A stretch of DNA of 64,000 nucleotides. It comes from Antilocapra americana (Eukaryota > Chordata > Mammalia > Artiodactyla > Antilocapridae). The stretch is taken from contig ML664159.1 in assembly GCA_007570785.1 (NCBI GenBank), forward strand, positions 620,001-684,000, read 5' to 3'. This document shows, in pieces, positions 6,098 to 56,741 of the stretch. The translations under genes and the position numbers were made by a program. How positions within the stretch are numbered: position 1 is the stretch's first letter; every line of letters starts with the position of its first letter. The notes under the pieces were generated by a model. The model was not told the DNA's origin, searched no databases, and saw only the letters and a program-made list of their open reading frames with translations.

Positions 6098-6408
6098 AGC
6101 TCTTAGTTTTTTTCTTTCTTTTTTCTCCCTTTTATTGTTTTTGTCATACAATGCCATGACATCACTATGGGTTTACATATGCTCTCCCTCCAGAAACCCC
6201 TCCTCCCTCCCCCCGGGAAATCTCGATGCACCAGCCCCGAGAATCAATCCTGGGCTGGCGATTGATTAGACACATGACAATTAACATGTCTCAATGCCAT
6301 TCTCCCATATCATCCCACCCTTTCCCTCATCCACAGAGTCCACGAGTCAATTCTATACATCTGCGTTCCTTTTGCTGTCTCGCATGTTGGGTTCTCGTTA
6401 CTGTCTTT

Positions 6409-7801
6409 CTAAATTCCATATATATGTGTTAATATACTGTATTGTTGTTTTTGCTTCTGGCTTACTTCACTCTGGATAATGGGCTCCAGTTCGGTCCATC
6501 TGAGTAGAATTGATTCAAATGAATTTTTTTTTAATGCTGAGTAATATTCCATTGTGTATATGTACCACAGCTTTCTTATCCATTCGTCAGTTGATGGGCA
6601 TCTAGGTTGCTTCCATGTCCTGGCTATTGTAAACAATGCAGCGATGAACATTGGGGTACACGTGGCTGTTTCAATTCTGGTTTCCTCGGTGTATATGCCC
6701 AGCAGTGGGATTGCTGGGTCATATGGCAGGACTATTTGCAGCTTTTTAAGGAACCTCCACACTGTTTTCCATAGTGGCNNNNNNNNNNNNNNNNNNNNNN
6801 NNNNNNNNNNNNNNNNNNNNNNNNNNNNNNNNNNNNNNNNNNNNNNNNNNNNNNNNNNNNNNNNNNNNNNNNNNNNNNACCCAGCAATCCCACTGCTGGG
6901 TCATATGGCAGGACTATTTGCAGCTTTTTAAGGAACCTCCACACTGTTTTCCATAGTGGCTGTACTAGTTTGCATTCCCACCAACAGTGTAGGAGAGTTC
7001 CCTTTTCTCCACATCCTCTCCAGCATTTATTGCTTGTAGACTTTTGGATGGCAGCCATTCTGATTGGTGTAAAGTGATACCTCATTGTGGTTTTGATTTG
7101 CATTTCTCTGATAATGAGTGATGTTGAACATCTTTTCATGTGTTTGTTAGCCATTTTTATGTCTTCTTTGGAGAAATGTCTGTTAAGGCTTTGGCCCACT
7201 TTTTGATTGGGTTGTTTATTTTTCTAGAATGGAGCTGCAGGAGTTGCTTGTATATTTTTGAGATTAATTGTTTGTCTGTTGCTTCATTGGCTATTATTTT
7301 CTCCCAATCTGAAGGCTGTCTTTTCACCTTGCTTATAGTTTCCTATGTTGTGCAGAAGCTTTTAATTTTAATTAGGTCCCATTTGTTTATTCGTGCTTTT
7401 ATTTCCAGTATTCTGGGAGGTGGGTCACGGAGTATCCCACTTTGGTTTATGTCAGAGAGTGTTTTGCCTATGTTATCCTCTAGGAGTTTTATAGTTTCTG
7501 GTCTTATGCTTAGATCTTTGATCCATTTTGAGTTTATCTTTGTGTATGGTGTTAGAAAGTGTTCTAGTTTCATTCTTTTACAAGTGGCTGTCCAGTTTTC
7601 CCAGCACCACTTGTTAAAGAGGTTGTCTTTTCTCCATTGTATATTCTTGCCTCCTTTGTCAAAGATAAGGTGTCCATAGATGCGTGGATTTATCTCTGGG
7701 CTTTCTATTCTGTTCCATTGATCTATATTTCTGTCTTTGTGCCAGTACCATGCTGTCTTAATGACTGTGGATCTGTAGTATAGCCTAAAGTCATGTAGGT
7801 T
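6409..7801 (-). pseudogene. L1 ORF2 C-terminal fragment (broken)
   Basis: Read on the minus strand this is the C-terminal part of L1 ORF2p, from the region after the RT thumb to the terminal HIYGI. The Cys-rich segment (CWRGC ... HCWWEC) lies near 6970-7040. A stop replaces the codon after 'SFCTT' at 7343-7345, where the intact copy at 43950-45335 has lysine. The frame is then cut by the gap at 6779-6878. The first residues of the minus-strand open frame upstream of 7801 come from the inverted segment, so that frame is chimeric. Confidence 0.85.
6779..6878. other. assembly gap (100 N) with overlapping flanks
   Basis: Exactly 100 N. The 67 bases before the gap (6712-6778) are repeated identically at 6894-6960 after it. 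An intact L1 at 43.9-45.3 kb shows that the flanks are contiguous, so the true gap length is probably negative. Open frames crossing the N run are meaningless. Confidence 0.95.
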
Positions 7802-7802
7802 G

Positions 7803-8767
7803 ATTCTAGCAAATAAAATCCAACAACACATCAAAAAGATCATACATCATGATCAAGTAGGCTTTATCCCAGGGATGCAAGGATTCTTCCATATTCGCAA
7901 ATCAATCAATGTAATACACCACATTAACAAATTGAAAAATAAAAATCACATGATTATCTCAGTAGATGCAGAGAAAGCCTTTGACAAAATTCAACATCCA
8001 TTTATGATAAAAACCCTCCAAAAAGTAGGAATAGAAGGAACATACCTCAACATAATAAAAGCTATATATGACAAACCTACAGCAAACATTATCCTCAATG
8101 GTGAAAAACTGGAAGCATTCCCCCTGAAATCAGGAACAGACAAGGATGCCCACTCTCACCACTACTTTTCAACATAGTTTTGGAAGTCTTGGCCACAGCA
8201 ATCAGAGCAGATAAAGAAATTAAAGGAATCCAGATTGGAAAAGAAGTAAAACTCTCTCTGTTTGCAGATGACATGATCCTCTATATTGAAAACCCTAAAG
8301 ACTCTACGAGAAAGTTACTAGAGCTAATCAATGAATATAGCAAAGTTTCAGGATACAAAATCAACACACAGAAATCCCTGGAATTCCTATACACTAACAG
8401 TGAGAAATCAGAAAGAGAAATTAAGGAAACAATTCCATTCACCATTGAAACAAAAAGAATAAAATACTTAGGAGTATTTCTACCTAAAGAAACAAAAGAC
8501 TTGTATATAGAAAACTATAAAACACTGATGAAAGAAATCAAAGAGGACACAAACAGATGGAGAAATGTGCCGTGTTCGTGGATTGGAAGAATCAATATAG
8601 TGAAAATGAGTATACTACCCAAAGCAATCTATAGATTCAATGCAATTCCTATCAAGCTACCAGAGGTCTTCTTTAAAGAATTAGAACAAATAATTTCTCA
8701 ATTTGTATGGAAATACAAAAAACCTCGTATAGCCAAAGCAATCTTGAGAAAGAAGAATGGACCTGGT
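7803..8767 (+). pseudogene. L1 ORF2 reverse-transcriptase fragment (inverted part)
   Basis: Sense ORF2 text. The first frame (7800-8177) carries the '[11 protein letters not shown]' region and 'AFDKIQHPF'. A one-base loss near 8135-8145, in the '[13 protein letters not shown]' region, shifts the frame. The second frame (from 8180) carries the catalytic FADD at residues 28-31 (8261-8272), then the 'KYLGVFLP' and '[10 protein letters not shown]' blocks. Sequence is close to the copy at 43950. It cannot make a functional enzyme. Confidence 0.9.
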
Positions 8768-8785
8768 GGAGTCAGCTCTTTGTTT

Positions 8786-9450
8786 TATACATGAATTGTT
8801 TCTTGTGCTACTCTGAAGTTTACGAATCCATTTATATTTAACTTGCTACAGCATATGCATTTTTTACTGTTAGTAAATATCTTAATCAATGCTTTAGAAT
8901 TGCTTTCCATGAACATATATTATTCTGTTCACTTTGGTTTGGTCATGTATTTTCTTAAAGGTCCTAGATTTCATATGCCTGCTGATGGAGTTACTATATG
9001 AACATTGATAAACCCAGTGGGTAAAAATTTCCAAGTTCCTCTCAAAATTCACATCTCTAAATCCGTGGGAAAGTAAGGAAAGTAATTTGATGGCATATAC
9101 CATGATGACAGCTGTCTATAGGGAAGTGTCCTAGGAGTAACTCATCCTTCATTTTTATTTGGAATGAACTCGCAGGAAAGATATAAATGATACTAGACTA
9201 AAAAAGGATTAATTTTCATCTCTGAGAAATGAACTAAGATTAGTATAAACTCATAATAGCAAATAATAAAAGTATCTTAGATTGAAAAGTGATGATGATT
9301 TGATTGAATAATGGATCCAAAAAATGGAGACCAGAGAGGGTTTATCTGGCATGCTGTAGAAGAAAGGATGCTCTAACAGACTGATGCTGTATCTGCTTTT
9401 ATGAGAGGCAAGGACTTTAGTCTGTTATAACCTGACTGGAATAACTAGTC
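8786..9450. other. unassigned DNA
   Basis: No recognised element between the L1 and the next SINE. Confidence 0.4.
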
Positions 9451-19994: not shown

Positions 19995-20110
19995 TGATCA
20001 TTTGTCTCCCCTAGTAAAATGAGACCTCCCTCAATGGAGAAAAATCTGTTCGTGTATTTTCATCAATGTAACTATAGCTTTCTATGCATGGTAGATGCTT
20101 AGTTTTTTTA
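19995..20110 (+). mobile_element. possible L2 3' end, sense
   Basis: 'ctcccctagtaaaatgagac' followed by 'ctatgcatggtagatgctta' resembles an L2 3' end. Weak. Confidence 0.3.
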
Positions 20111-20164
20111 AAATGTTGAATGTGCTTTCTACTTTGGTAAGAATTTTTTGTGCATTTAATTTTT

Positions 20165-20640
20165 GCTCACCCTTTTGTAATGGGCTGAATGTTGCCAACC
20201 ATTGACATCAAGTTCTAATCCCTGGAACCTGTTAAGTGTTAATTTATAAGGAAAAGGGGTCTTTGAAAATGTCATTAAATTAAGGATTTCAAAATGGGAA
20301 TATTATTCTGGATTATCCCATTGGGCCCTCGAGACAAAGAGAGGTCATTTGTCAAATCTGAGATTACAGAAAAGGAAAAGGAAGTGTGACCATGAAGGTA
20401 GAGTTTGGAGTGATATGGCCACATGTCAAAGAATGCTGGCAGCTACTAGGAGGTGAAAGAGAAAAGGAATGGGTTCTCCCCTAGAGCTTCCAGAGGGAGA
20501 ATGGCCGTGTCAGCACCTCAGGTTTGAACCCATGAAACTGATTTTGGACTTCCAGCCACCAGAATTAGGAGAGAATAAGTTTCTTCTTTACAAATAATCA
20601 AGTTTGGTTATACGATTTCCCAATCCTGAAGCAAATTAGA
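20165..20640 (+). mobile_element. MaLR-type LTR-like element (MLT/MST class), decayed
   Basis: 'aatgggctgaatgttgccaa', 'tctttgaaaatgtcattaaa', 'ggattatcccattgggccct', 'cttccagccaccagaattag' and 'gagaataagtttctt' follow the order of an ancient mammalian MaLR-like LTR. Its last 40 bases appear to fall inside arm 1 of the large inverted repeat. Exact family not assigned. Confidence 0.5.
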
Positions 20641-21360
20641 AACAAAAAACAATTAGGAAGAACTTCTAAGCCAAAGATAGATGAATACACAGAGTAGTGA
20701 AGTGAGATCTTCTGACAATAAAAGAGGAGACCAAACAAAATTCATTCAGTTGTCTTCAGAGTCACTCTACTACAGCAATTATCTAATTGATGTTCTTAAC
20801 TCGGAGGGATAGACATAAGTACGATTATACTATGTATAATATGTATATTTCCTTTTATAAATGCTTCCTTCAGATATGGCTGAAATTAAAGCAGTTTTTA
20901 AAGCTTAACTTTCATTTACTTTAGAATTTCACTTTTGCCGAGCTTAGTTCTCCAGGGAGTATTTACCTATAAAAAAGTATTTTTATATGTAACCACCCTT
21001 TGAGAGCTTTAAAAGCCAAGGACTCCATATGACTCAGTAGACTGTTGAGTTGGGTATTGTTCCAGTAAGTGTTGAATTCCTAAATGAAGGTAATAGATTT
21101 TATACCATCACAAGGCCCTCCATTGCTAGGAAAAGTTGAACTTGTATCATCAGAAGAAATTTTTAGGCTTTTTCCCTACTAAGAATTTAATAAATTATTG
21201 TTAAATATACAAATACACAATTCTACTGAAATTTTCTGTGGCTATAACATTGAGCCACTGAAGGTTAACTATGAAAGATTTTTGGGTAGCTTAGTTTCCT
21301 ACTGCTTAAAATAATTCAGAAGTATATACTAATAACAGTAGTAGCTACAAAAATTGAGTT
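20600..21360 (+). repeat. arm 1 of large inverted repeat
   Basis: About 761 bases that reappear in reverse complement at 23455-24230, at roughly 88-90% identity by eye. Perfectly shared blocks include 'aattagaaacaaaaaacaat', 'gaggagaccaaacaaaattc', 'atgtataatatgtatatttc', 'agattttataccatcacaag' and 'aataaattattgttaaatat'. Small indels separate the arms; for example arm 2 has about 16 extra bases after 'atatgtaacc'. No known element recognised inside the arm. Confidence 0.9.
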
Positions 21361-22235
21361 CTTTTGTCACTTGCAACAGCCCATGTAACTCAAGAGATGC
21401 TTACTCCATTTTCAGCCCCAGGTAATATCATTCAAAACAAATTGTGGTAATACTATGTTTCCTATCTCTACTGGTTTAAGAATTCAGATTTAAGCTAATT
21501 ATTATATAACATTCCTTTAGTGATTGTCAATCGTCCAAGACTGGAACAAGATCTTATTTGTCCAGTCAAACTGAAGAGAACTTTTATTATTTGGTTAAAG
21601 ATAGGCTCTCCATCTTTCCTGATGGATATGAATAAAAAAGCATCGTCTGCCAGAAGCTGTCATCTGACAAAGAAAGAAGTGTGTCAGAGTCAATACACAG
21701 AGAAAGAAAGAGCTCAGTGAATTTCAGAGATATTACGTTGTGGCCTATGTGCACATAAAACAACTACTTCCCCCTACCCTTGGACTTTCTGATAGTGAGA
21801 ACATACCTTTTATTATTGTGTAAACCAGAATCATTCTCATGTAAATAATATAGGTGAAGATGTAAAGACAATATATTTAAACATTTTTTCAAGGTGATTA
21901 GCTATGGAGGACAATATGGAGATAATGAGGGTGGTTGAATGATGAAAGGAAGAACAAAATGTTAGATGAGGCATAGAAAATCATTACTGAGAAAGTTGTG
22001 AGCTGATGAGATGAGTGATATCCAAATTACGTGGGAATAGGAAAGATGATTCCTCACTTATAGCAAATGAGTAAAAGAATAGACGGAGATGCAGGAGGCT
22101 AGACATATTTATTAGAGAAATCTCTATTAAATAGCTTCTATTTTCTCAGTGAAGTTAGATAGCATGTCTGCTGGAAGATTGAGCTGGCATGGAATAGTGG
22201 TTTTTAGGAGCTGAAGAAGTCATGAAACAGTAATT
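21361..22235. other. unassigned spacer DNA (part 1)
   Basis: Lies between the inverted arms. A 66-codon open frame (21520-21720) has no identifiable domain. No repeat recognised. Confidence 0.4.
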
Positions 22236-22600
22236 AAAGAGACTGGATATATTAGGTTGCATTAATGTCACCAGTTCTTCACTGCTTCATATAGTCACAC
22301 TCTTTGTCCTATAATGTTGCAGTTATTCCCACAGAACAGGCAGATAATATATCTAATTTCTGACTTTGGGTATAAATGTATGACTTTCTTTCACCAGTAG
22401 AATGAGTTGGATGTGACTTTATGCCAGTTTTTAGTTTATATCCTAAAAGGTCTTGCACAGTGACCCTGGATCTCTTGTTTTGCTGCTAATGCCTTAAGAA
22501 CATGTCTAGGATGCCTTGCTTATTCTAGGAGGAAGATGAGACGTATGTGAAGGAGAGATGCCACAACTGAACCATTCCAGATGGGTCTGGCCTGTATTAG
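22236..22600 (+). mobile_element. possible ancient LTR-like fragment
   Basis: Text such as 'ctttcaccagtagaatgagt', 'ttgttttgctgctaatgcct' and 'ggtctggcctgtattagaca' has the composition and order of an old mammalian LTR. The family could not be named. Confidence 0.3.
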
Positions 22601-22909
22601 ACAATCCCTATCTGATTTGTAGATTTTGCATTTCTTTTTAGGTAGTAACAGATAATTGATATGCTGGGAAAGTAACTTTATTAGGGAATGCAATATTAAA
22701 TATTAGGACTATTTGAAGGCTTAGTTGAGACTGGGGATTATAAATTAATAGTGATATTAACCTGTCCTGTTAGGGAATTTCCTTCTGTAGGGTGGAGCTT
22801 CAAGGTACAAGAATATGGAAGGCAGATGAATGAGTTGGAAAATAACGAGAAAAGGTGGCTGATGATATTGAGAAATTGGCATTAGAAATAATATAGTCAT
22901 CTGTATACT
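22601..22909. other. unassigned spacer DNA (part 2)
   Basis: Nothing recognisable. Confidence 0.4.
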
Positions 22910-23220
22910 TAAATACAATAAACTAGTGAGTATAACAAAAAATAAGTAGACTCACAGACATAGAGAACAAACTAGTGACTATCAGTGGAGAGGGGAGGGA
23001 GAGGGACAAATTAGGGGTAGGAGATTAAGAAGTATGAACTCTTATATATACAAAAGCTATAAGGATATTATCTACAATGAAGGAAATATAACTAATATTT
23101 TACAATAATGATAAATGGAGTATATCCTTTAATATTGTGAATCACAATATTGTATACCTACAAGTTACATAACATTGTATAGCAACAATATTTCAATTAA
23201 AAATAATAAATTAGTTAGAA
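22910..23220 (+). mobile_element. old L1 3' end, sense
   Basis: 'agactcacagacatagagaa', 'caaactagtgactatcagtg' and 'cattgtatagcaacaatatt', with an A-rich end, match an old ruminant L1 3'UTR. It lies in the spacer of the inverted repeat. Confidence 0.7.
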
Positions 23221-23454
23221 AAAAGAAAGTTGTGATTAGAAAAAGGAAACATTTGAATAAGTGATAATGAATATAAACAGTTCAAGGTTATGACACAGAA
23301 GAAGGTAGCTAATGTAGAAAAGAAGACCAAGGGATGAAAACATGTAGGAACTGAGAGGTTAGAACAGCTAATCTGTGGGACTGTGAAGTCATTCAGGATG
23401 CTTGTCAGAAGCTGCAGTAGATGAGACTCACTTTGGAGGGGTGCGTTGGAGATT

Positions 23455-24230
23455 CTTCTGAATTTTTGTAGTTCCTAATGCTATTGGGATACATTTCTGA
23501 ATTATTTTAAGCAATACAAATCTATGTTACCCAAAATCTTTCATAGCTAGCAAGTGGCTCAATGTTATATCCACAGAAAATTTCAGTAGGTTTGCGTATT
23601 TGTATATTTAACAATAATTTATTAAATTCCTAGTAGGGAAAAAAGCTTAAAAACTATTTCTGATGATACAAGTTCATCTTTTTCTAGCAGTGGAGGGCCT
23701 TGTGATGGTATAAAATCTATTACCTTCACTTAGGAATTCAGCACTTACTGGAACAATACCTCAACAGTCTACTGAATCATATGGAGTCCTTGGCTTTTAA
23801 AGCTCTCAAAGGATGACTTCTAAAGGCTTTGGTTACATATAAAAATATTTTTTATAGGTAAATGCTTCCTGGAGAACTAAGCTCTGCAAAAGTGAAATTC
23901 TAAAGTAACTGAAAGTTAAGCTTTTCAAGTAAAAACTGCTTTAATTTCAGCCACATTTGATGGAAGCATTTATAAAAGGAAATATACATATTATACATAG
24001 TATAATCATACTTATGTCTATCCCTTAGAGTTAAGAACATCAGTTAAGTAATTGCTATAGTATAGTGACTCTGAAGACAACTGAATGAATTTTGTTTGGT
24101 CTCCTCTTTTATTGTCAAAACATCTCATTTCACACTCAGTGTACACATCTATTTTTGGCAGTCCTTTTCTTCCTAATTGTTTTTTGTTTCTAATTTGTTT
24201 CAGAATTGGGAAATCATATAGCTAAACTTA
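23455..24230 (-). repeat. arm 2 of large inverted repeat
   Basis: Reverse complement of 20600-21360. Its outer end (24190-24230) pairs with the last 40 bases of the MaLR-like LTR that spans the outer edge of arm 1, yet no LTR continues beyond 24230. This suggests arm 1 is the older location and arm 2 an inverted copy. Confidence 0.9.
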
Positions 24231-25185
24231 TTTAATTACATGTCAAGTAGAAATAGTAGTCTTTAAATAAGTACCTGAAAGAATTTAATCTTATGAGATT
24301 TGTTAGAAATATTTTTCCTCTTAATGGACTTTTTGAATATATTTGCTGGCTCTGAACACTTTAAATTTCTGTTCTATGATTTTAAGATCAGCACGATATT
24401 GCTACACTTTTTATAAAAACTTTGATTTAAACTTTTTTTGCTATATGGACTCAAGATGAATAGAATTACTATTAATATTAACCAATTCAAACCTTCCTAT
24501 CTTAGGTAAACATAGCCTATTTTATAGGCTATGAAACATGAAATGGTTTATGAAACATAAACTATTTCAAAGCTGAAGAAGGCCTTAGAGAACATTGTTC
24601 CAAGAAAGATTTTTTTATCTTACTTTAAAAAATAATTTTTGAAAGAGTCATCTAAAAAGGATATTGAATATCTTGCTCTGAGAACGAGGGATATTAAAAA
24701 GTGTGATATGAATCTCACTCAATCTGGTTGTCTTGATTCTGGTTGACTAGAAATTGAATCTGGAGTTTCCTAATATTAAAACTAAGTATAGCTTTTATAC
24801 TGCATTTATTTAAACTTATCTTCATAATCTTCAATAAACTATCTTAAAGTATCATGACAATGAGTAACCAAAGAAAAAGACACCTTCAAGTCATATATGA
24901 ATATACTCGAAACTTTAATTTCAAGCATAGTTAATCTACAAATGAGTCATTAAGCACTTAATATTAATGACAGAAATATTGTTCCTAAATTTAAAAGAGA
25001 TAGTCACATTTGCCAAAAATAAGACTGTTTTATGTTTTAATGTAGAAAGTAGTTTTAACGTAGTAATATACAAGATGAGCTACTGAACTTAGAGGACGAA
25101 ATAACCCCGGTGATGGTCCAATTACACACTTAGTGAGCTTTGAAATTGTTTGATCTTCTTTGGAGAAATTGAATCTTAAAAAATT
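24231..25185. other. unassigned AT-rich DNA
   Basis: No recognised repeat or gene. Confidence 0.4.
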
Positions 25186-26677: not shown

Positions 26678-26896
26678 AGGGCTTCCCTGGTGGCTCAGCA
26701 GTAAAGAATCCAATTGCCAATGCAGGAGATGCAGATTTGATCCCTGGGTCAGGAAGATCTCCTGGAGTAGGAAATAGCAACCCATTCCAGTATTATTGCC
26801 TGGGAAATCCCATATACAGAGGAGCCTGGCTGGCTATAGTCCACGGGGTTGCAAAGAGTCGGACATGACTTAGTGACTAAACAAAGACAACAACAA
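26678..26896 (+). mobile_element. Bov-tA SINE, sense
   Basis: 'gggcttccctggtggctcag', 'aatgcaggagatgcagattt' and 'gcaaagagtcggacatgact', with an 'aaacaaagacaacaacaaa' tail. Confidence 0.95.
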
Positions 26897-29930: not shown

Positions 29931-30133
29931 AAACTACCCAGTAATTTCTTTAATCACAATTATATGTAGCATGTATTCCTGACATTCTTTGCTCAATTTT
30001 GGTCAAAGAAATTTAAATTTAATTTTAAATAAGATTTTAATGAATTAAATTTTATTTGACCATCATTGAGCAAAGAATGTCAGGAATACATGCTACATAT
30101 AACTGTGATTAAAAAAAATTACTGGGAAGTTAG

Positions 30134-41484: not shown

Positions 41485-41643
41485 AAGATGACAGAGGATG
41501 AAATGGCTGGATGGCATCACTGACTTGATGGACATGGATTTGGGTAGACTCCAGGAGTTGGTGGTGGACAGGGAGGCCTGGTGTGCTGCAATTCATGGAG
41601 TCACAAAGAGTTGGACACGACTGAGTGACTGAACTGAACTGAA
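41485..41643 (+). mobile_element. BovB 3' end, sense
   Basis: 'gacagaggatgaaatggctg', 'gatggcatcactgacttgat', 'gtgctgcaattcatggagtc' and 'gactgagtgactgaactgaa'. Only the last 160 bases of BovB are present. Confidence 0.9.
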
Positions 41644-43919: not shown

Positions 43920-43949
43920 AAAAACTCACACCGTGGAAGAATCAACATA

Positions 43950-45335
43950 GTGAAAATGAGTATACTACCCAAAGCAATCTATAGATTCAATGCAATTCCT
44001 ATCAAGCTACCAGAGGTCTTTTTCAAAGAATTAGAACAAATAATTTCTCAATTTGTATGGAAATACAAAAAACCTCGTATAGCCAAAGCAATCTTGAGAA
44101 AGAAGAATGGAACGGGCGGAATCAACCTCCCTGACTTTAGGCTATACTACAAATCCACAGTCATTAAGACAGTATGGTACTGGCACAAAGACAGAAACAT
44201 AGATCAATGGAACAGAATAGAAAGCCCAGAGATAAATCCACGCATCTATGGACACCTTATCTTTGACAAAGGAGGCAAGAATATACAATGGAGAAAAGAC
44301 AACCTCTTCAACAAGTGGTGCTGGGAAAACTGGACAGCCACTTGTAAAAGAATGAAACTAGATCACTTTCTAACACCATACACAAAGATAAACTCAAAAT
44401 GGATCAAAGATCTAAGCATAAGACCAGAAACTATAAAACTCCTAGAGGATAACATAGGCAAAACACTCTCTGCCATAACCCAAAGCGGGATACTCCATGA
44501 CCCACCTCCCAGAATACTGGAAATAAAAACACGAATAAACAAATGGGACCTAATTAAAATTAAAAGCTTTTGCACAACAAAGGAAACTATAAGCAAGGTG
44601 AAAAGACAGCCTTCAGAATGGGAGAAAATAATAGCCAATGAAACAACAGACAAACAATTAATCTCAAAAATATACAAACAACTCCTGCAGCTCCATTCTA
44701 GAAAAATAAACAACCCAATTAAAAAGTGGGCCAAAGAACTTAACAGACATTTCTCCAAAGAAGATATAAAAATGGCTAACAAACACATGAAAAGATGCTC
44801 AACATCACTCATTATCAGAGAAATGCAAATCAAAACCACAGTGAGGTACCACTTTACACCAGTCAGAATGGCTGCCATCCAAAAGTCTACAAGCAATAAA
44901 TGCTGGAGAGGATGTGGAGAAAAGGGAACCCTCTTACACTGTTGGTGGGAATGCAAACTAGTACAACCACTATGGAAAACAGTGTGGAGGTTCCTTAAAA
45001 AGCTGCAAATAGACCTGCCATATGACCCAGCAATCCCACTGCTGGGCATATACACAGAGGAAACCAGAATTGAAAGAGCCACGTGTACCCCAATGTTCAT
45101 CGCTGCATTGTTTACAATAGCCAGGACATGGAAGCAACCTAGATGCCCATCAACTGACGAATGGATAAGAAAGCTGTGGTACATATACACAATGGAATAT
45201 TACTCAGCATTAAAAAAAAATTCATTTGAAGCAATTCTACTCAGATGGACGAAACTGGAGCCCATTATCCAGAGTGAAGTAAGCCAGAAGCAAAAACAAC
45301 AATATAGTATATTAACGCATATATATGGAATTTAG
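43950..45335 (+). CDS. L1 ORF2p C-terminal part, uninterrupted frame
   Basis: 461 codons without a stop up to the normal ORF2 terminus (HIYGI). Residues 1-60 match the region after the RT catalytic core ('[12 protein letters not shown]' at about 35-46). The C-terminal Cys motif C318-x3-C322-x7-H330-x4-C335 is intact. The EN domain and RT catalytic FADD lie upstream in a full L1 and are absent here. Full ORF2p is about 1,270 residues, so this is roughly the last third. The first ATG is internal and no promoter is present, so it is a dead fragment rather than a gene. The antisense open frame at 44363-45190 is its shadow. Confidence 0.85.
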
Positions 45336-45437
45336 AAAGACGGTAACGAGAACCCAACATACGAGACAGCAAAAGGAACGCAGATGTATAGAATAGACTC
45401 GTGGACTTTGTGGATGAGTGTAAGGGTGGGATGATAT

Positions 45438-45537
45438 NNNNNNNNNNNNNNNNNNNNNNNNNNNNNNNNNNNNNNNNNNNNNNNNNNNNNNNNNNNNNNN
45501 NNNNNNNNNNNNNNNNNNNNNNNNNNNNNNNNNNNNN
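45438..45537. other. assembly gap (100 N) with overlapping flanks
   Basis: Exactly 100 N. 45381-45437 (57 bases) is repeated at 45538-45594 with one difference (gagTgtaa against gagGgtaa). The right flank then continues the L1 3'UTR directly. The true sequence probably needs the N run and one 57-base copy removed. Confidence 0.95.
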
Positions 45538-45921
45538 CAGATGTATAGAATAGACTCGTGGACTTTGTGGATGAGGGTAAGGGTGGGATGATATGGGAGA
45601 AGGGCATTGAAGCATGTTAATTTTCATATGTCTAATCAATCGCCAGCCCAGGATTGATGCTCGGGGCTGGTGCAGCGAGATTTCCCGGGGAGGGAGGGAA
45701 GAGGGAGGGGGGTTCCGGAGGGGAAGCATATGTAAACCCATGGTGATATCATGACAATGTATGGCAAAAACAATTAAAAAAAAAAAAAACTCACACCGAC
45801 TATGCGGTAGGGAGGTGAGATCAGTCAGTTAAATAAGATGATTCAGATTATTGTGATGTGCTTTTTACTAAAATAGGCTATATGTACTTAAAAAATCATT
45901 TTGTAGAGGTACCATGGAGGT

Positions 45922-46440: not shown

Positions 46441-46941
46441 CAGTTCAGTCCAGTTCAGTTCAGTCACTCAGTTGTGTCCAACTCTTTAAGACCGCATAAA
46501 TCTCAGCACGCCAGGCCTCCCTGTCCATCACCAACTCCCGGAGTCCACCCAAACCCATCCATGTCCATCAAGTCGGTGATGCCATCCAACCATCTCATCC
46601 TCTGTCGTCCCCTTCTCCTCCTGCCCTCAATCTTTCCCAGCATCAGGGTCTTTTCCAAGTCAGCTCTTGGCATCAGGTGTCCAAAGTATTGTAGTTTCAG
46701 CTTCAACATCAGTCCTTCCAATGAACTCCCAGGACTGATCTCCTTTAGGATGGACTGGTTGGATCTCCAAGGGACTCTCAAAAGTCTTCTCATGTCAATG
46801 TATGGCAAAATCAACACAATAATGTAAAGAAAATAAATAAACAAATAAATATATTTATAAAAACTATTAGAACAAATAAAATAATCTACAAAAAAAAAAA
46901 GTCTTCTCCTGTGCCACACAGTTTAAAAGCATCAATTCTTC
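46441..46941 (-). mobile_element. BovB 3' end, antisense, with nested L1 tail
   Basis: 'cagttcagtccagttcagtt', 'gccaggcctccctgtccatc' and 'gatgccatccaaccatctca', back to 'agcatcaattcttcgg'. About 390 bases of BovB. 'ggacct' flanks it at 46435-46440 and 46942-46947, a short target duplication. Confidence 0.9.
46792..46900 (+). mobile_element. L1 3' tail inside BovB, possible 3' transduction
   Basis: 'atgtcaatgtatggcaaaat', 'caacacaataatgtaaagaa', then A/T-rich text to 46888 and a second A run. 'aaaagtcttctc' flanks it at 46780-46791 and 46897-46908. The roughly 40 bases between the first A-rich tail and the second A run are not L1 and may have been carried along from a source locus. Confidence 0.75.
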
Positions 46942-52651: not shown

Positions 52652-53437
52652 TTAAAATGAATATTCAGGACTAATTTCCTTTAGGATTGACTGGCTGGAT
52701 CTCCTTAAGGTCCAAGGGATTCTCAAGAGTCTTCTCCAACACCACAGTTCAAAACAATCAATTCTTCGGTACTCAGCTTTCTTTATAGTCCAACTTTCAC
52801 ATCCATACTTGACTAGTGGAAAAGCCATAGCCTTAACTAGACGGACCTTTGTTGGCAAAGTAATGTTTCTGCTTTTTAATATGATGTCTAGGCTGGTCAC
52901 TTTCCTTCCAAGGAGTAAATGTCTTTTAATTTCATGGCTGCAGTCACCATCTGCAGTGATTTTGGAGCCCCCCAAAATAAAGTCAGCCACTGTTTCCACT
53001 GTTTCCCCATCAATTTGCCCTGAAGTGATGGGACCAGATGCCACGATCTTAGTTTTCTGAATGTTGACCTTTAAGGCAACTTTTTCACTCTCCTCTTTCA
53101 CTTTCATCAAGAGCCTCTTTAGTTCTTCACTTTCTGCCATAATGGTGGTGTCGTCTGCATATCTGATGTTATTGATATTTCTCCCAGCAATCTTGATTCC
53201 AGCTTGTGCTTCATCCAGCCCAGCATTTCTCATGATATACTCTGCATATAAGTTAAATAAGCAGGGTGACAATATACAACCTTGACGTACTCCTTTTCCT
53301 ATTTGGAACCAGTCTGTTGTTCCATGTCCAGTTCTAACTGTGGTTTCCTGACCTGCATACAGATTTCTCAAGAGGCATGTCTGGTGGTCTGGTATTCCCA
53401 TCTCTTTCAGAATTTTCCACACTTTGTGGTGATCCAC
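52652..53437 (-). pseudogene. BovB reverse-transcriptase core, open for 261 codons
   Basis: Minus-strand frame with the RT 'RQGCILSPCLFN' block at residues 51-62 and the catalytic YADD at 93-96. It continues through 'YGCESWTIKK' to the normal-looking end 'LKEISPEYSF'. One glutamate codon is missing in the 'ESEE(E)L' stretch. The upstream RT part (53637-53972) is in another frame, and about 200 bases between contain frame breaks. It is therefore a decayed element despite the long frame. Confidence 0.85.
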
Positions 53438-53636
53438 ACAGTCAAATGCTTTGGCATAGTCAATGAAACAGAAATAGATATTTTTCTGGAACTCTCTTGC
53501 TCTTTTGATGATTCAGTGGATGTTGGCAATTTGATCTCTGGTTCCTCTGCCTTTTCTAAAACTGGCTTGAATATCTGGAAGTTCACAGTTCACATATTGT
53601 TGAAGCCTGGCTTGGAGAATTTTGAGCATTACTTTA

Positions 53637-56470: not shown

Positions 56471-56741
56471 TGACTGATGTTGAAGCTGAAGCTCCAATAC
56501 TTTGGCCACCTGATGCGAAGAATTGACTGATGATGATAAAGAAAAGACCCTGATGCTGGGAAAGATTGAAGGCAGAAGGAGAAGGGGACGACAGAGGATG
56601 AGATAGTTGGATGGCATCACTGACTCAATGGACATGAGTTTGAGCAAGCTCTGGGAGTTGGTGATGGACAGGGCAGCCTATTGTGCTGCAGGCCAAGGGG
56701 TTGCAGAGAGACGGACCCAACTGAGCGACTGAACTGACTGA
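55846..56741 (+). mobile_element. BovB LINE 3' part, sense
   Basis: 'ccttgcttatttaacttgta', 'gaatcaagattgctgggagg', 'cacttcatggcaaatagatg', 'ggtgttggagaagacccttg' and 'gatggcatcactgactcaat', ending 'gagcgactgaactgactgag'. It starts just upstream of the YADD motif. About 0.9 kb. Confidence 0.95.

What the first reader, a model, noticed from the sequence alone, without database searches (positions are those of the whole stretch)
20600..24230. Large imperfect inverted repeat (arms about 0.76 kb, spacer about 2.1 kb)
20600-21360 reappears in reverse complement at 23455-24230 with about 90% identity by eye and only small indels. The arms match no repeat family I recognise. The MaLR-like LTR at 20165-20640 overlaps the outer 40 bases of arm 1. 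Arm 2 carries only those 40 bases, pointing to an inverted duplication copied from arm 1 rather than a transposon with terminal repeats. A transcript across it could fold into a long dsRNA hairpin.
Basis: seen in the sequence. Interest (0 to 1): 0.75.

Follow-up and report, generated by a model that had tools for sequence, protein, structure and literature searches.

The report
Old local inverted DNA duplication
A 0.77-kb piece of non-coding, probably ruminant, DNA occurs twice, back to front, about 2 kb apart; the pair is real and old but looks like an ordinary scar of DNA repair, with no sign of a function.

Summary
The inverted repeat is real: 20592-21358 matches the reverse complement of 23458-24240, 91.5% over ungapped columns (86.5% with gaps), spacer 2,099 bases. 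Fifty shuffles come nowhere near it. Searches of the window's own 2.44-Gb genome found only these two copies, so it is not an ordinary interspersed repeat. No ORF of 100 aa or Rfam match lies there.

The MaLR-type LTR does not run 40 bases into both arms. Its recognisable sequence stops at about 20590-20606, at arm 1's outer edge; neither arm's outer 58 bases resemble the 3' tails of 26 genomic LTR copies. Tail-like sequence lies just inside arm 1, about 21360-21405 (2 of 299 random segments score as high; one search is mixed). So arm 1 is more likely a copy of arm 2 inserted into the LTR, the reverse of the proposed direction.

Best reading: one templated inverted insertion by break repair or template switching, very roughly 15-40 Myr old, perhaps homogenised later in its centre, neutral. 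RNA across it could form a long hairpin, but transcription could not be tested. A new case of a known kind.

The parts
20176..20590 (+). MaLR/MLT1-type LTR body (name recalled); start by eye, genomic matches begin at 20182; similarity may reach 20606
   Evidence: 40 non-self matches at 66-81% identity (40 of 270 candidates scored). Of the 17 that reach 20564 or beyond, 16 stop at 20566-20590 and one at 20606, although the query ran to 20643
20592..21358 (+). arm 1, probably the derived copy; BLAST limit 20580
   Evidence: two copies only
21360..21405 (+). possible remnant of the LTR 3' tail just inside arm 1 (suggestive only)
   Evidence: 21359-21416 mean z 1.81, 11 of 26 copies above 2, 2 of 299 random segments as high; 22 of 26 copies align from tail position 13-26 to 42-60; scan mixed
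21359..23457 (.). spacer, 2,099 bases
   Evidence: one full-length place in the own genome; all 39 other scored matches fall on the piece at 22911-23210 or its immediate edges (40 of 1,883 candidates scored)
22911..23210 (+). old interspersed repeat piece, LINE-1 3'-end-like (name recalled)
   Evidence: 39 non-self matches at 75-80% identity
23458..24240 (-). arm 2, probably the source; BLAST limit 24253
24254..25180. single-copy flank beyond arm 2, without LTR tail signal
   Evidence: one match, itself; 24241-24298 z -0.16 and 24254+ z 0.42

Best explanation
It is an old, single local inverted duplication. A break or stalled fork in the 3' tail of an ancient LTR was repaired by copying about 0.77 kb from a template about 2.1 kb downstream in opposite orientation (arm 2 to arm 1), perhaps entering through a short AAGTTT-like homology seen by eye at 20600-20605 and in arm 2, and then returning to the LTR. 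Shown: two inverted low-copy arms, and the LTR's recognisable sequence ending at the arm-1 edge. Suggested: the LTR tail resumes just inside arm 1, so arm 1 is the copy (about 3 to 1); and the centre of the arms was later homogenised, or evolves more slowly. Inferred: the break-repair or template-switch mechanism, the age (very roughly 15-40 Myr, rates recalled) and neutrality. It probably has no function; if a transcript crosses it, the RNA would form an imperfect long hairpin as a by-product.
For: Two copies only and a flank that is single copy. LTR stop at the arm edge: 20530-20591 z 11.2 with 12 of 12 copies above 2, 20592-20645 z -0.09 with 0 of 12; repeated with 12 copies and 26 copies; BLAST ends. 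Tail-like sequence at 21359-21416 (2 of 299 random segments as high; 11 of 453 random joins as high at 21359, 1 of 453 at 21365; register and truncated-tail control). No notable target-site duplication (a 6-mer at the arm-1 edges, matched by 930 of 4000 random pairs) and no poly-A at the arm ends by eye. Less divergence in the centre: 5.2% at 20716-21216 against 14.4% outside, 12 of 300 shuffles; thirds 10.4, 4.0, 12.0%, p 0.004 on counts worked out from those rates.
Against: The tail remnant is weak: in the local scan other places score as well or better (23687 -, 21279 -, 24187 +); the extension test gave the arm itself and the inner edge about equal gains (8.9-15.3 and 9.2-9.8 for 21353; null 4.8 +/- 2.6); and permissive alignments with the arm included run past 20591 in 26 of 31 copies. 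One search, whose query was cut at 20591, says nothing on where the LTR stops. Beyond arm 2 one search gave middling ranks (29 and 16 of 453). No orthologous locus was available, so neither direction nor mechanism is proven.
Confidence: 0.65

Rival explanations
1. Same kind of event in the reader's direction: arm 1 is original and arm 2 the inverted copy; the LTR lost its 3' tail separately or in the same event.
For: The LTR body is intact only beside arm 1; local alignments with the arm included run past 20591 in 26 of 31 copies; 2 of 26 tails match arm 1's outer 58 bases at z above 2.
Against: The arm edge would have to coincide by chance with the end of the recognisable LTR; arm 1's outer segment scores like random DNA (z 0.34); tail-like sequence lies at the other end of arm 1.
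Confidence: 0.2
2. A small inversion of the spacer by staggered breaks, whose filled-in overhangs left inverted duplicates at both ends.
For: Such inversions leave inverted duplications at their breakpoints in Drosophila (PMC5080602, passages). The arms and spacer have that layout.
Against: If the LTR tail remnant at 21360-21405 is real, the spacer's left end keeps the LTR's orientation. No outgroup was available.
Confidence: 0.1
3. Two insertions of one rare mobile element in opposite orientation.
For: Arm 1 seems to lie inside an LTR, as an insertion would.
Against: Only two copies were found in 2.44 Gb, 2.1 kb apart; no notable target-site duplication; no poly-A by eye; no Rfam match. The arms were not compared with a repeat library, which was not at hand.
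Confidence: 0.03
4. A functional hairpin-RNA locus (endo-siRNA or editing substrate) kept by selection.
For: Arms pair strongly (-1035 kcal/mol, 704 of 767 bases); longest perfect runs 54 and 46 bases; centre less diverged.
Against: Any inverted duplication pairs. No ORF of 100 aa, no Rfam match, no CpG-island-like 300-base window in 264 kb. siRNA production is the main bottleneck for RNAi from long dsRNA in mouse cells (PMC6391682, abstract). No RNA data were available.
Confidence: 0.02

Closest known systems
Class 2 templated sequence insertions (PMC5110952, passages)
   Same: Copied patch without target-site duplication or poly-A, with possible microhomology and microdeletion at the junction
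   Different: Described for distant donors and as human polymorphisms, often from RNA; here the donor is 2.1 kb away and inverted, and the event is old
MMBIR / FoSTeS template switching (PMC2621351, passages) and short inverted templated insertions at breaks in yeast (PMC11724301, abstract and outline)
   Same: Local template in inverted orientation, then a second switch that restores the chromosome
   Different: Yeast local fold-back insertions are mostly about 5-34 bp; here about 770 bases; junctions are too old to read exactly
Fold-back inverted duplications of human patients (PMC3907307, passages)
   Same: Inverted copies with an unduplicated spacer; 2,099 bases lies in their range (766-70,466, median 3,428, 21 junctions)
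   Different: Those are large and joined to terminal deletions or translocations; this one is 0.77 kb and interstitial
Long inverted repeats catalogued in human DNA (PMC5414712, passages)
   Same: Arms over 30 bp, identity above 85%
   Different: The tool comparison there limits stem and loop to 2,000 bp, so this spacer would just fall outside

Membership tests
Local inverted duplication (long inverted repeat) | Two reverse-complement arms over 30 bp with identity above 85% | tested here: met
   91.5% ungapped, 86.5% with gaps
Local inverted duplication (long inverted repeat) | Arms are low copy, not two members of a repeat family | tested here: met
   Two places only in the own genome
Local inverted duplication (long inverted repeat) | Spacer not duplicated | tested here: inconclusive
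   One full-length place, but only 40 of 1,883 candidates were scored; 21359-22900 alone did not complete
Class 2 templated sequence insertion | No target-site duplication and no poly-A | tested here: met
   Shared 6-mer at the arm-1 edges is as common as 930 of 4000 random pairs; poly-A absent by eye
Class 2 templated sequence insertion | Donor from a distant genomic region | tested here: not met
   The only other copy is 2.1 kb away
Class 2 templated sequence insertion | Insertion absent from an ancestral or sister allele | not testable with these tools
   No related mammalian genome held
Fold-back inverted duplication | Unduplicated spacer in the kb range | tested here: met
   2,099 bases against 766-70,466
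Fold-back inverted duplication | Large duplication adjoining a terminal deletion or translocation | tested here: not met
   Arms 0.77 kb, interstitial: window at 620001-684000 of an 8.3-Mb contig
Interspersed transposon with terminal inverted repeats | Further copies in the genome | tested here: not met
Staggered-break inversion | Spacer reversed relative to outgroups | not testable with these tools
   No outgroup sequence held
Hairpin-RNA (endo-siRNA) locus | Transcript across both arms with Dicer products or editing | not testable with these tools
   No RNA data; pairing potential only

The most novel reading that the evidence does not exclude
An old inverted duplication whose centre is kept alike by arm-to-arm gene conversion, or by selection on a long RNA hairpin, so that it serves as a tissue-limited source of double-stranded RNA: a sub-kilobase counterpart of conversion-maintained palindromes.
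Probability: 0.05. Interest if true: 0.5.

Novelty: new member of a known kind. Interest (0 to 1): 0.18.

Why it matters
It is one well-preserved fossil of a small inverted templated insertion, with a built-in marker (an apparently interrupted LTR) that may tell donor from copy. If the slower centre were proved to be gene conversion between 0.77-kb arms 2 kb apart, it would add a case of short dispersed inverted repeats being homogenised. It changes no view of genome function.

Tried and rejected
Interspersed repeat or transposon: set aside, only two copies found. Coding or known RNA: no stop-to-stop ORF of 100 aa or more between 19368 and 27032, no Rfam match (whole window at gathering scores; for 20000-24800 at E<=1). 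LTR inside the arms: not supported. Insertion of the whole arm-spacer-arm block into the LTR: no tail signal beyond arm 2 (24241-24298 z -0.16; 24254+ z 0.42), though one search gave it middling ranks (29 and 16 of 453). A similarity test of the LTR body with arm 2's outer flank gave 35.5, the same as the best of 100 shuffles (mean 25.9); not pursued.

Tests that did not help: position-wise match fractions in free-end alignments stay near 0.7 also outside the LTR; the extension-gain test did not separate the contiguous arm from the inner edge; one search's LTR-body query was cut at 20591, so its alignment ends (20582-20590) are no evidence of where the LTR stops. Rows dropped: 5 of 31 fetched LTR copies (L036, L040, L045, L048, L050), mean tail z of 3 or less against the others. 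An exact 31-mer shared by both arms had 0 matches in viral contigs and in genome contigs. The spacer half 21359-22900 and 23220-24457 did not complete.

Full report
Observation. The inverted repeat is present. BLAST of the window against itself pairs 20580-21358 with 24253-23458 in opposite orientation, 86.5% over 806 columns, and gives no other match to the arms. The repeat finder reports it as nine ungapped pieces (I1-I8 and I13). A local alignment has 766 ungapped columns, 701 identical (91.5%), K2P 0.091, with 43 gap columns, the largest gap of 14 near 20995. Fifty composition shuffles reach at most 34 against 1079.

Copy number. In the window's own genome (2.44 Gb, 2,503 contigs) arm 1 has two matches, itself and arm 2 (E<=0.001), and arm 2 the same two (E<=10); the tool warns that it skips very common words. 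The flank 24254-25180 has one match, itself. The spacer has one full-length place; its 39 other scored matches (of 1,883 candidates, 40 scored) lie on one old LINE-1-3'-end-like piece around 22911-23210 at 75-80% identity. The spacer half 21359-22900 could not be searched alone; it has no repeat depth in the 264 kb around it. Among low-depth pairs of at least 80 columns in those 264 kb this is the longest (806 columns; next 444); the other low-depth pairs or hairpins closer than 1 kb have 80-203 columns.

The LTR. The LTR is real: 40 other matches at 66-81% identity (40 of 270 candidates scored). Of the 17 that reach 20564 or beyond, 16 stop at 20566-20590 and one at 20606, although the query ran to 20643. 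Against 12 fetched copies, 20530-20591 scores mean z 11.2 (12 of 12 above 2) and 20592-20645 scores -0.09 (0 of 12); one search agrees (arm 1 0.66 and 0.17, arm 2 0.2). Of 31 copies fetched in all, 26 carry a recognisable 3' tail, scoring mean z 4.1-9.7 against the other copies; 5 were dropped. Against those 26 the outer 58 bases of arm 1 score 0.34 and of arm 2 -0.24, like random window segments (0.13 +/- 0.49, n = 299). So recognisable LTR sequence stops, within about 15 bases, where arm 1 starts. One search does not count here, as its query ended at 20591.

Direction. An LTR that ends at the arm-1 edge is what an insertion into the LTR would give, and the missing tail should then lie beyond the arm's other end. 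The segment 21359-21416 scores mean z 1.81, 11 of 26 copies above 2; 2 of 299 random segments do as well. In 22 of 26 copies it aligns from tail position 13-26 to 42-60, the register expected if the first 15-25 bases are on the other side; copies resemble each other, so this is not 22 independent results. Real tails cut by 20-25 bases score 0.4-6.7, a range that holds 1.81. In a join test 11 of 453 random joins do as well at 21359 and 1 of 453 at 21365, against 135 of 453 for the contiguous arm. Against this: in the same call's local scan other places score as well or better (23687 -, 21279 -, 24187 +); the extension test did not discriminate; and alignments with the arm included run past 20591 in 26 of 31 copies. 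I take arm 1 as the likely copy and arm 2 as the likely source, about 3 to 1 (4 to 1 before one search was withdrawn as support).

Age and later history. With a divergence of 0.09 and rates of 1.2-3 x 10^-9 per site per year (recalled) the arms separated about 16-40 Myr ago; the more diverged ends alone would give 27-67 Myr. The repeat piece in the spacer, at 75-80% to its relatives, is roughly 10-12% from their root if divergence is shared equally, and so probably predates the arms' split of about 4.5% per arm (inference). Divergence is uneven: 5.2% at 20716-21216 and 14.4% outside, reached by 12 of 300 shuffles; thirds 10.4, 4.0 and 12.0%, p 0.004 on counts worked out from those rates. Conversion of the centre or a slowly evolving centre would both do this.

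Mechanism. Inverted copies with a spacer not seen twice, no notable target-site duplication and no poly-A at the ends by eye fit a templated inverted insertion during break repair or template switching. Related processes in print: MMBIR (PMC2621351, passages), fold-back duplications with spacers of median 3,428 bases (PMC3907307, passages), inverted templated insertions at breaks in yeast (PMC11724301, abstract and outline), class 2 templated insertions in humans (PMC5110952, passages), microinversions and short template switches in apes (PMC8755829, passages; PMC7954356, abstract and outline). A staggered-break inversion (PMC5080602, passages) would also give inverted arms; it is less likely if the LTR tail remnant is real. 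Inverted duplications also lie at herring inversion breakpoints (PMC11499932, passages).

Function. Folding the arms together gives 704 of 767 arm-1 bases paired to arm 2 and -1035 kcal/mol, against 79 bases and -320 with one shuffled arm 2; this follows from the sequence and is no evidence of use. No ORF of 100 aa or more lies between 19368 and 27032, no Rfam family matches, and no CpG-island-like 300-base window occurs in 264 kb. Transcription is neither shown nor excluded. In yeast, widely spaced and diverged inverted repeats can fold back in long single-stranded DNA (PMC10164571, abstract), so some residual instability is possible.

Organism.

Verdict. A true observation of an ordinary kind, with the proposed direction of copying probably reversed.

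Noticed in passing
6119-7806 and 8584-8774 versus 45789-44119 and 43934-44124: A second, younger inverted pair, mostly 96-97% identical (88% at its outer end) and about 36 kb apart, with an RVT_1 ORF at 8105-8794: probably two recent LINE insertions; copy number not searched.
   Followed up: partly
6779-6878 and 45438-45537: Two 100-N gaps, both inside that pair and flanked by repeated ends (6698-6778 and 6880-6960 94%; 45381-45437 and 45538-45594 98%): look like unmerged assembly overlaps.
   Followed up: no
29932-30131: A 200-base self-complementary stretch, 86% in its match to itself, low copy in the 264 kb, no Rfam match.
   Followed up: no
68-220 and 453-605: Low-copy direct repeat of 153 bases, 93% identical, 233 bases apart.
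   Followed up: no
G000:C2190:571609-571759 and 572225-572076 (L008): A smaller low-copy inverted pair outside the window, 151 columns, 87%, 317 bases apart.
   Followed up: no
26855-26878, 41607-41630, 46462-46485, 56707-56730; ORF 52652-53512 (-): Four matches to a recalled BovB/Bov-tA end motif and an RVT_1 ORF, in keeping with a ruminant genome.
   Followed up: partly
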